Shown: one piece after another, positions 10,225 to 14,914 of the stretch
Numbering within the stretch: the stretch's first letter is position 1
Layout of the letters: each line of letters begins with the position of its first letter
Assembly (NCBI RefSeq): GCF_040215725.1
Contig: NZ_CP157967.1
Location: 3,504,501 to 3,568,500, forward strand
Length of the DNA: 64,000 bases
Direction: 5' to 3'
From: Rhizobium sp. ZPR4
GTDB lineage: Bacteria; Pseudomonadota; Alphaproteobacteria; Rhizobiales; Rhizobiaceae
The notes under the pieces: generated by a model
Told to the model about the DNA's origin: nothing
The model's input: the letters and a program-made list of their open reading frames with translations, nothing else
Databases searched by the model: none
Position numbers and translations under genes: made by a program

Positions 10225-10842
10225 GTGCTGAAGGAAGAGGTCGATCAACGCTATCTGCGCATGCCCCATGCCGAGCGCGGCATGGTGGTCGGTCTTTTCG
10301 GCGGCTCCTTCAACCCGCCGCATCGCGGCCATGCGCTGGTCGCCGAGATTGCTCTTCGCCGGCTCGGCCTCGACCAACTCTGGTGGATGGTGACGCCCGG
10401 CAACCCGCTGAAGAGCCGCAATCACCTTGCGCCACTTGCCGAGCGCATCGCGCTCAGCGAACAGCTCCTCCACGATCCCCGTATCAAGGTGACGGCCTTC
10501 GAGCAGACGCTGGGCATGAGCTACACGGCCAACACGCTGGCGCATGTGAAGGCGCGCAACCGCCAGGTTCATTTCATCTGGATCATGGGTGCCGACAGCT
10601 TGAATACATTCCATCGCTGGCAAAAGTGGGAAGAGATCGCCCGCACCTTCCCGATCGCCGTCATAGACCGGCCGGGATCGACGCTCTCCTATCTCTCGGC
10701 CAAGATGGCCAAGACCTTCCACTACGCCCGCGTCGACGAGGATGACGCCCGCGTGCTCTGGAAGAAGCGTGCACCGGCCTGGACTTTCATCCATGGGCCA
10801 CGTTCGGCACTCAGCTCGACCGCCTTGCGCGCCGCACAGTAA
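10225..10842 (+). CDS. nadD: nicotinate-nucleotide adenylyltransferase
   Basis: NadD adenylates nicotinate mononucleotide in NAD synthesis. It has the nucleotidyl-transferase motif GLFGGSFNPPHRGH and the C-terminal SSTALR (ISST-type) motif. The start is uncertain. GTG 10225, one base after the proA stop, gives 205 residues; ATG 10261 gives 193. The longer N-terminus (VLKEEVDQRYLRMPHAERG) is kept because related rhizobial proteins share it. Neither start has a clear ribosome-binding site, which suggests translational coupling to proA. In many rhizobia nadD is followed directly by rsfS; here 4.2 kb of mod genes intervene. Confidence 0.93.
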   Translation: MLKEEVDQRYLRMPHAERGMVVGLFGGSFNPPHRGHALVAEIALRRLGLDQLWWMVTPGNPLKSRNHLAPLAERIALSEQLLHDPRIKVTAFEQTLGMSYTANTLAHVKARNRQVHFIWIMGADSLNTFHRWQKWEEIARTFPIAVIDRPGSTLSYLSAKMAKTFHYARVDEDDARVLWKKRAPAWTFIHGPRSALSSTALRAAQ

Positions 10843-10871: not shown

Positions 10872-10995
10872 AAATAAAAAGCCCGACGCGGGAGGAGGAT
10901 GCGTCGGGCTTTTGAACCTGATCAGCAACTGGGAGGAGGAGAGTTGCTGATCCATCTCGAACGGCATTGGGAGGAGGAGATCGCCGTTTCGATGA
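10872..10995 (-). ncRNA. alpha-r14/NfeR1-type small RNA with three anti-Shine-Dalgarno hairpin loops
   Basis: Read on the minus strand, three hairpins follow one another: 10991-10958 (stem about 8 bp), 10952-10920 (perfect 11-bp stem) and 10913-10876 (13-bp G+C-rich stem). Each loop holds the same motif, CUCCUCCUCCC or AUCCUCCUCCC, complementary to ribosome-binding sites. The last hairpin ends in GGGCTTTTT and TTTT, a Rho-independent terminator in this orientation. This is the architecture of the alpha-r14 family of rhizobial sRNAs (NfeR1 in Sinorhizobium), which pair through repeated CCUCCUCCC loops with many transporter mRNAs. The 5' end near 10995 is an estimate. Confidence 0.85.
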
Positions 10996-11357
10996 TTATG
11001 TTTTAGCAGATTTTACCGATTGATAAATGATCGATTGCGCAATGCAGCAATGCATATAGCGCATGACTATGAAAATTTTCTGCCCAAAAAACGCTTCTTT
11101 TGCAGAATTGCGGCATTCGGATTTTCACTGCCGGAATCAAACAACCACAATAAAGGCCCACAATCGCACGGTTCGTAACGTTACGTCTTGCTTCGTGAGC
11201 GTTCGCCAAGCCGTTGGGCGAATCCAGTCATGCATTTTTGCAATGCCTGAAACCCTTCGTATGCACTACGCCACGGAAAATCCATAGAATTCGTAGGGTT
11301 ACGTGACAATTTCGCGATATATTTTTGCAAATACATCCCTAGCCAAGCCTCTCCCGC

Positions 11358-11402: not shown

Positions 11403-12200
11403 ATGACCACCAGCCGACGCCAATGGATCAAGCTTGCAACCGCCGCAGTATCAGCCGCATGGCTCGGCCTCTCGGTCATTCCGACGCCAGCGTTCGCCGC
11501 CGACAAGATCGTCGTCTTTGCCGCCGCCAGCATGAAGAACGCGCTCGACAATGCCGATGCCGCCTTCACCAAGGAAACCGGCAAGGAGGTCACCGTCTCC
11601 TATGCCGCGAGCGGACCGCTTGCCAAGCAGCTTGAAAACGGCGCACCCGCCGATGTCTTCATATCAGCCGATACCAACTGGATGGATTATGTCGCTGGCA
11701 AGAAGCTGATCAAGGACGACAGCCGGGTGAACCTCCTCGGCAACAAGCTCGTTCTCGTCGCCGCCAAGGACAAGGCGAAGCCAGTCGACATCAAGCACGG
11801 CTTTGACCTCGCAGCCCTTCTTGGCGACGGCCGTCTGGCGATCGGCCAACCGGAATCGGTGCCGGCAGGCAAATACGGCAAGAGCGCGCTGGAAAAGCTC
11901 GGCGTCTGGTCGTCAGTCGAAAAGAAGGTTGCCGGTGCCGAAAGCGTTCGTGCCGCACTCGCGCTCGTTTCGCGCGGCGAAGCGCCCTACGGCATCGTCT
12001 ACCAGACCGACGTCTCGGCCGATCCGGGCGTTGCCGTCGTCGGGACCTTCCCGGCAGACAGCCACCCGCCGATCGTCTACCCCTTCGCCATCACCAGCAG
12101 CAGCAAGAACCCGGACGTTCAAGCCTATTTCGACTATCTGAAATCGGCTAAGGCTGTTCCCTTCTTCGAGCATGAGGGCTTCACCATCCTGAAGCAGTGA
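11403..12200 (+). CDS. modA: molybdate ABC transporter, periplasmic substrate-binding protein
   Basis: ModA captures molybdate or tungstate in the periplasm and delivers it to ModBC. The 265-residue protein has a signal peptide of about 32 residues with a twin-arginine pattern (SRRQWIKLA, then a hydrophobic core and AFA cleavage site). The mature protein starts ADKIVVFAAASMKNAL, the conserved anion-binding loop, followed by YAASGPLAKQLENGAPADVF. The ATG at 11403 has GGGGAGA eight bases ahead; an ATG at 11376 lies inside the candidate operator and is less likely. modB follows after 85 bases. Confidence 0.95.
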   Translation: MTTSRRQWIKLATAAVSAAWLGLSVIPTPAFAADKIVVFAAASMKNALDNADAAFTKETGKEVTVSYAASGPLAKQLENGAPADVFISADTNWMDYVAGKKLIKDDSRVNLLGNKLVLVAAKDKAKPVDIKHGFDLAALLGDGRLAIGQPESVPAGKYGKSALEKLGVWSSVEKKVAGAESVRAALALVSRGEAPYGIVYQTDVSADPGVAVVGTFPADSHPPIVYPFAITSSSKNPDVQAYFDYLKSAKAVPFFEHEGFTILKQ

Positions 12201-14614: not shown

Positions 14615-14914
14615 ATGCCAGCCTATATCATTTCCGACGTCACCGTCCGGGATGCCGACGCCTTCCAGACCTACCGGACCCGCGCGGCCGCCTCCATTGC
14701 CCACCATGGCGGGCACTATCTTGTCCGCGGCGGCGCGATCGAGCAGCTGGAAGGCGATTGGTCGCCGCGTGCGATCGTGATCGTGGAATTTCCGGATTTG
14801 GAACGGGCGAGGGCCTGGTATCGTTCGCCGGAATATGCACATGCTCTCGCGGTCCGCGATCAGGCTCTCAGCCGCAATCTCATTCTGGTCGACGGAGTAA
14901 GCCGGGAAGCCTGA
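14615..14914 (+). CDS. DUF1330 domain protein (dimeric alpha/beta barrel)
   Basis: A 99-residue protein of the DUF1330 family, a ferredoxin-like dimeric alpha+beta barrel related to the ABM/NIPSNAP group. It has MPAYIISDVTVRDADAFQTY at the start, the central GGHYLVRGG and VIVEFPDLERARAWYRSPEY, which is the most conserved segment. No enzymatic residue can be named. AGGAGGAG lies six bases before the ATG. It starts divergently from the ModE-like gene and may be unrelated to molybdate. No terminator is visible after it. Confidence 0.88.
   Translation: MPAYIISDVTVRDADAFQTYRTRAAASIAHHGGHYLVRGGAIEQLEGDWSPRAIVIVEFPDLERARAWYRSPEYAHALAVRDQALSRNLILVDGVSREA

What the first reader, a model, noticed from the sequence alone, without database searches (positions are those of the whole stretch)
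10872..10995. Three-hairpin sRNA with anti-Shine-Dalgarno loops beside the molybdate operon
On the minus strand three consecutive hairpins carry the same CUCCUCCUCCC-type loop, and the third is a Rho-independent terminator. This is the plan of the alpha-r14/NfeR1 family, known to base-pair with ribosome-binding sites of transporter mRNAs. It lies divergently before modA, whose own ribosome-binding site (GGGGAGA) is partly complementary. The family link is established knowledge; regulation of modA or of the DUF1330 gene (AGGAGGAG) is inference.
Basis: partly seen in the sequence, partly recalled or inferred. Interest (0 to 1): 0.75.

Follow-up and report, generated by a model that had tools for sequence, protein, structure and literature searches.

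The report
A known anti-ribosome-binding-site small RNA
This is an ordinary but well-preserved copy of a known family of small regulatory RNAs in root-nodule bacteria, which are thought to silence many messages by covering the sites where ribosomes bind; lying beside the molybdate genes does not make it their dedicated regulator.

Summary
Minus strand 10997-10874 matches Rfam ar14 (RF02344) end to end at 112.4 bits, cut-off 58.8. It folds into three hairpins with open CCUCCUCCC-type loops, and the stems covary in 50 of 72 distinct relatives aligned. It is one of five ar14 copies in this genome. Among 80 named modA loci, the sRNA is in 58 of 58 with nadD within 4 kb and in 0 of 22 without. [quoted passage not shown] 74 of 78 distinct relatives and the three AbcR copies found in this genome have it too. 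It most likely works as an LsrB-activated, trans-acting anti-Shine-Dalgarno repressor; expression is untested. modA as target fails: 166th of 432 genes, no better than with shuffled loops, no better linked than unlinked. DUF1330 pairs strongly here (4th of 432) but in only 2 of 19 relatives. Small new point: NfeR1's NtrC-type box (30 of 78 relatives) and another conserved block (41 of 78, this window included) never occur together.

The parts
10874..10997 (-). ar14 (alpha-r14) sRNA gene, 124 nt by the Rfam model
   Evidence: cmscan RF02344, 112.4 bits, model 1-123 of 123
10958..10991 (-). hairpin 1 with anti-SD loop CUCCUCCUCCC (10979-10969)
   Evidence: Rfam alignment, fold, 5 pairs with changes on both sides
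10920..10952 (-). hairpin 2 with anti-SD loop CUCCUCCUCCC (10941-10931)
   Evidence: fold, 5 pairs with changes on both sides
10877..10913 (-). hairpin 3 with loop UCCUCCUCCC, followed by a U-run: probable intrinsic terminator
   Evidence: fold, sequence, 3 pairs with changes on both sides; not listed by the terminator scan, whose loop limit it exceeds
11041..11053 (-). LsrB/VtlR-type box GCATTGCTGCATT, matches published consensus GCAT-N3-TG-N3-T
   Evidence: 74 of 78 distinct orthologs, reversed control 0 of 78, opposite strand 2 of 78; consensus from passages of PMC8844928
11050..11063 (-). TGC-N7-GCAT (T-N11-A LysR-type box) corresponding to the NfeR1 TGCA-N6-GCAT box
   Evidence: 57 of 78 distinct orthologs; NfeR1 box from passages of PMC10746234
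11080..11101 (-). conserved block AAAAGAAGCGTTTTTTGGGCAG where other Rhizobium species have an NtrC-type TGC-N11-GCA box; function unknown
   Evidence: T-run block in 41 of 78 distinct orthologs, never together with the NtrC-type box; its 16-nt core has no second exact copy in the genome
11001..11006 (-). weak candidate -10 element CTAAAA
   Evidence: read from sequence by eye; the consensus scan found no sigma-70 match
10261..10842 (+). nadD-type gene converging on the sRNA
   Evidence: Pfam PF01467, cytidylyltransferase-like; the name nadD is mine, recalled
11403..12200 (+). modA-type gene, divergent from the sRNA
14615..14914 (+). DUF1330 gene with strong local pairing to the sRNA loops
   Evidence: Pfam PF07045; -20.8 kcal/mol, rank 4 of 432

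Best explanation
The feature is the nadD-linked ar14 sRNA of Rhizobium. LsrB most likely switches on its transcription from the box at 11053-11041. The RNA ends at its third hairpin, and its three open CCUCCUCCC loops base-pair in trans with ribosome-binding sites of many mRNAs to block their translation, as shown for its relative NfeR1 in S. meliloti. It acts in parallel with other ar14 copies and with the AbcR sRNAs, which carry the same box. Shown here: family, structure, strand, conservation of locus and of the box. Inferred: expression, LsrB binding, repression of targets. It is not specifically a modA regulator.
For: RF02344 112.4 bits. Fold z -7.16. Covariation in 50 of 72 distinct ortholog sRNAs: 65 cells changed on both sides against a shuffled mean of 25.0 (0 of 500 shuffles), 93.8% of cells paired against 23-47% in slid controls (the structure came from one of the sequences, which favours it over slid versions). 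Loop 1 reads CTCCTCCTCCC in 78 of 78 distinct orthologs, of which the first 7 bases were required to find them. Published LsrB consensus at a fixed distance in 74 of 78, controls 0 and 2 of 78. Four of five ar14 copies and the three AbcR copies found in this genome carry it. A stricter form, GCATWRCTGNNNTGC, has ten sites in the 7.7-Mb genome (reversed control four): six upstream of ar14/AbcR genes, four inside open frames. A frame that reads like a LysR-type regulator lies upstream of the tandem AbcR genes (no family call). Published function of NfeR1 and LsrB: PMC10746234 (introduction and passages), PMC8844928 (passages).
Against: No transcript data. In S. meliloti only one of six copies was reliably detected by northern blot (PMC7143759, passages), so this copy may be weak or silent. 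The sigma-70 scan found no promoter and the -10/-35 are poor by eye. The NtrC box of NfeR1 is absent here. The fifth ar14 copy (L002) lacks the LsrB box, and only 14 of 41 ar14 copies in loci L010-L038 have it. A second match to the seven-base consensus lies at 11233, outside the promoter proper. The pattern was drawn from the sRNA promoters themselves, and the third AbcR does not fit it, so only the absence of other intergenic sites is informative.
Confidence: 0.85

Rival explanations
1. It is a dedicated local regulator of the divergent modA (molybdate uptake) by pairing with its ribosome-binding site.
For: The sRNA lies near modA in 58 of 58 named loci where modA has nadD within 4 kb, and modA is in the fetched stretch of 49 of 50 unnamed loci with the sRNA (the named and unnamed sets overlap).
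Against: modA pairing ranks 166 of 432; 344 of 500 shuffled loop sets pair as well; linked modA pairs no better than unlinked modA; extra DNA separates sRNA from modA in L179, L182 and L212 while the sRNA stays by nadD.
Confidence: 0.08
2. DUF1330 mRNA is a direct target in this strain and its closest kin.
For: Ten consecutive pairs at the Shine-Dalgarno, -20.8 kcal/mol, rank 4 of 432; 10 of 500 shuffled loop sets as low; kept in L146 and L147.
Against: 17 of the 19 relatives with the gene lack GAGGAGGAG; any strong SD would score well; with a dozen or so neighbouring genes one such hit is not rare.
Confidence: 0.3
3. A duplicate copy with little or no expression of its own.
For: Five copies here; one of six reliably detected in S. 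meliloti (PMC7143759, passages); weak core promoter.
Against: Strong conservation of loops, covarying stems and LsrB box in the genus.
Confidence: 0.1
4. Mainly a two-way terminator or antisense element at the end of nadD, not a trans regulator.
For: The third hairpin is followed by TTTT on the plus strand too, and begins about 35 nt after nadD ends.
Against: Two further hairpins with conserved loops, and a conserved upstream box on the minus strand, are not explained.
Confidence: 0.04

Closest known systems
alpha-r14 / Rfam ar14 (RF02344)
   Same: Three hairpins, anti-SD loops, terminal hairpin with U-run, full-length model match
   Different: Nothing found beyond stem differences
NfeR1 of Sinorhizobium meliloti (PMC10746234, introduction and passages)
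   Same: Family, loops, LsrB-type box at a similar distance
   Different: No NtrC-type box here, another conserved block in its place; the S. meliloti locus was not fetched by name, so orthology is open
AbcR1/AbcR2, Rfam ar15 (RF02345)
   Same: Anti-SD mechanism (published) and the same LsrB-type promoter box in this genome
   Different: Different RNA family and fold
RFM SmelA075/SmelA099, aSD-hairpin RNAs with 3 or 4 modules (PMC3927594, passages)
   Same: Repeated CCUCCUCCC hairpins; a 4-hairpin form seems to occur twice in this genome
   Different: The window copy has three modules
CcsR RNAs of Rhodobacter (recalled; search listing only; a two-hairpin homologue RS0680a is in passages of PMC3927594)
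   Same: aSD motif loops
   Different: Two hairpins; link to a DUF1127 gene (recalled)

Membership tests
ar14 / alpha-r14 | Covariance-model score above gathering threshold, correct strand | tested here: met
   112.4 against 58.8 bits, minus strand
ar14 / alpha-r14 | Three hairpins, each with an unpaired CCUCCUCCC motif | tested here: met
ar14 / alpha-r14 | Variable stems held by compensatory change, conserved loops | tested here: met
   (13 pairs with changes on both sides, shuffled mean 7.5, 1 of 500 as high); loop 1 in 78 of 78, partly by selection
ar14 / alpha-r14 | Discrete transcript of about 120 nt | not testable with these tools
   no expression data held
ar14 / alpha-r14 | Represses mRNAs through the loops | not testable with these tools
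   in the papers seen, published for NfeR1 (PMC10746234)
NfeR1 | LsrB-type box upstream | tested here: met
   consensus at 11053-11041; binding itself not testable
NfeR1 | NtrC-type TGC-N11-GCA box upstream of the LsrB box | tested here: not met
   absent from 11250-10998 of the window; present at the NfeR1-like place in 30 of 78 distinct orthologs
NfeR1 | Same chromosomal locus | tested here: inconclusive
   S. meliloti locus not fetched by name; nadD flanks of 27 unnamed loci from other genera hold no ar14 match

The most novel reading that the evidence does not exclude
Within Rhizobium the same sRNA locus has two input designs. The leguminosarum/etli-like species keep NfeR1's NtrC-type box beside the LsrB box, whereas the tropici/rhizogenes-like species, this window included, have another conserved block in its place; the two never occur together in 78 distinct promoters. 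This would uncouple the RNA from nitrogen status and give it a new input, while LsrB still drives it together with three other ar14 copies and three AbcR sRNAs as one anti-Shine-Dalgarno regulon.
Probability: 0.35. Interest if true: 0.5.

Novelty: new member of a known kind. Interest (0 to 1): 0.28.

Why it matters
It places a testable member of a known anti-Shine-Dalgarno sRNA family in a conserved Rhizobium locus, ties it by a shared promoter box to the AbcR sRNAs, and corrects a tempting but unsupported inference from neighbourhood to target. The split in its promoter makes a testable case of how the inputs to a conserved regulatory RNA change.

Tried and rejected
modA as a special target: rejected on rank, shuffled loops and the linked/unlinked comparison. 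The 432-gene ranking uses gene starts from a simple caller of my own and is rough; the frame I take for ntrB (by its place before the ntrC match, no family call of its own), a validated target in S. meliloti, ranked only 96 of 432, so the ranking cannot exclude a target. A regulon for the conserved block: its 16-nt core, allowing two mismatches, gave one exact and three two-mismatch sites, reversed control one, so no regulon was inferred. The sigma-70 scan was empty. The 81-aa minus-strand ORF 10967-10722, which starts inside the sRNA, was taken as mechanical, because its ATG stands at that place in only 20 of 50 aligned orthologs. Published evidence for this locus: searches, and passages of the R. 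etli papers PMC2881028 and PMC3188799 (no mention of modA, nadD or molybdate in their main text) did not show it; supplements could not be opened. Enrichment of ABC-transporter mRNAs among predicted targets was not tested. No tree of ar14 paralogs was built.

Full report
Observation. The minus strand of 10997-10874 holds three hairpins with open CU-rich loops, the last followed by a U-run. The fold is far more stable than shuffled sequence (z -7.16, 0 of 200), and the loops are unpaired with mean probability 0.89-1.00. Rfam's ar14 model matches end to end at 112.4 bits against a gathering score of 58.8; the only other Rfam match in the window at gathering score is a tRNA. The terminator scan did not list hairpin 3, whose loop is longer than the scan allows.

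Family and copies. The genome holds five ar14 matches, all above cut-off. In a draw of 151 genomes of the family, 146 have a match at E <= 0.001 and 137 reach the cut-off. In 120 genomes of the window's genus, own included, all have one, with 3 to 10 copies each (strict filters may lose weak ones). S. meliloti is reported to have six copies, of which one is reliably detected by northern blot (PMC7143759, passages).

Locus. A search with the DNA between nadD and modA found matches in 120 of 120 genomes of the genus, but a match can be to any ar14 copy. I examined 50 of these loci. The best 30 had both nadD and modA. Of 20 more, chosen from the shorter matches, all had nadD and the sRNA, and 19 had modA in the fetched stretch, twice at a longer distance. 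For named records, one search kept the best 80 of 227 modA-type loci. The 58 of these with nadD within 4 kb all hold the sRNA on the strand opposite to modA, and the 22 without nadD (among them Agrobacterium, Ensifer, Neorhizobium, Phyllobacterium and Mycoplana) do not (sRNA found by its three loops). Of the 30 best nadD loci from 148 genomes of the family, with 1.5-kb flanks, the three from the window's genus hold an ar14 match and the 27 from other genera do not. So the locus looks like a feature of the genus, probably from one event; this does not by itself show a functional link. In L179, L182 and L212 extra DNA lies between sRNA and modA.

Structure under selection. In 50 of the 72 distinct ortholog sRNAs, 93.8% of cells pair, 13 pairs show changes on both sides (shuffled mean 7.5, 1 of 500 shuffles as high) and 65 cells do so (shuffled mean 25.0, 0 of 500); slid controls pair 23-47% of cells, though the structure came from one of the sequences. 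Pairs often broken: 61-73 in helix 2 (35 of 50), 90-127 and 92-126 at the base of helix 3, and 19-36 and 15-40 in helix 1. The first loop reads CTCCTCCTCCC in all 78 distinct 278-nt ortholog sequences taken from 108 loci; the search for them required its first seven bases.

Promoter. [quoted passage not shown] meliloti abcR1. The window copy has GCATTGCTGCATT at 11053-11041, 56 nt before the Rfam start. It lies at the same place in 74 of 78 distinct orthologs; the reversed pattern occurs in 0 and the opposite strand in 2. In this genome it precedes four of five ar14 copies and the three AbcR (ar15) copies found; the AbcR sites are all at -61. In loci L010-L038 of the family draw, 14 of 41 ar14 copies have it. 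A pattern drawn from these promoters, GCATWRCTGNNNTGC, has ten sites in the whole genome (reversed control four): six are ar14 or AbcR promoters and four lie inside open frames. That pattern was made from the sites and misses the third AbcR, so only the lack of further intergenic sites is evidence. A reading frame that looks like a LysR-type regulator lies upstream of the tandem AbcR genes (no family call made).

The NtrC box. PMC10746234 (introduction in full, other passages) reports TGC-N11-GCA at -116 to -101 of NfeR1. Among the 78 distinct orthologs, 30 have TGC-N11-GCA at -127 to -129 from loop 1, 28 of 78 by a test of distance to the LsrB box; 17 further matches lie at -73 to -75, within the LsrB region. 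A T-run followed by GGGCA or a near variant occurs in 41 of 78; 0 have both and 7 have neither. In this window the block reads AAAAGAAGCGTTTTTTGGGCAG at 11101-11080. Among the 28 named rows, 10 have the block and no NtrC-type box (for example R. lusitanum, R. leucaenae, R. calliandrae, R. tubonense), 15 have the NtrC-type box and no block (for example R. leguminosarum, R. johnstonii, R. lentis, R. anhuiense), and 3 have neither. The group names are mine, from these species; no tree was built. A stricter form of the block was counted in 30 of 78. Its 16-nt core has no second exact copy in the genome. What binds it is unknown.

Targets. With rough gene calls on about 0.5 Mb of the genome (432 genes), modA ranks 166, the presumed ntrB 96 and DUF1330 4 by duplex energy with the loops. 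For modA, 344 of 500 shuffled loop sets pair as well; for DUF1330, 10 of 500. modA pairing averages -10.8 kcal/mol in 58 linked loci and -11.5 in 22 unlinked ones. DUF1330 pairing is -20.8 or lower in two of 19 relatives with the gene and between -7 and -18 in the other 17. Neighbourhood therefore gives no support for modA, and DUF1330 is at most a local target.

Mechanism. Most likely LsrB activates the gene and the RNA covers ribosome-binding sites of several mRNAs in trans, redundantly with its paralogs. The anti-SD action and loop redundancy are published for NfeR1 (PMC10746234, PMC7143759) and are inference here. Core promoter elements are weak, which would fit a promoter that needs an activator but also a silent copy.

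Novelty. It is a new, well-conserved member of a known family. Four-hairpin relatives such as L004 and L005 are also known in kind (PMC3927594, passages). The split of the promoter within Rhizobium was not seen in my searches, which cover open-licence papers only; [quoted passage not shown]

Noticed in passing
L004:1464-1626 and L005:1463-1624: Two ar14 copies (on C5 and C2) have a fourth anti-SD hairpin in front of the Rfam match; the LsrB-type box lies about 36 nt further upstream, as expected if the RNA starts at that hairpin.
   Followed up: partly
window 11080-11101: A 22-nt block, conserved with small changes in 41 of 78 distinct orthologs, in the place of the NtrC-type box; function unknown, no second exact copy of its 16-nt core in the genome.
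   Followed up: partly
L006:7973-8097 (own genome C1:1261972): This ar14 copy lacks the LsrB-type box. At least 19 of the 29 loci L010-L038 gave tblastn hits to its surroundings (five hits shown per locus), which hold what I read as tig, trmFO and small DUF1127-like frames.
   Followed up: partly
L012, L014, L021 and others: Other genera carry two or three ar14 copies in tandem within about 750 bases, often with the LsrB-type box only before some of them.
   Followed up: no
G000:C6:28814-28923: A third AbcR (ar15) copy on another contig, with the LsrB-type box at -61.
   Followed up: no
L008:3348-3439 and L009:6650-6746: A ROSE thermoregulator near one ar14 copy and a TPP riboswitch near another.
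   Followed up: no
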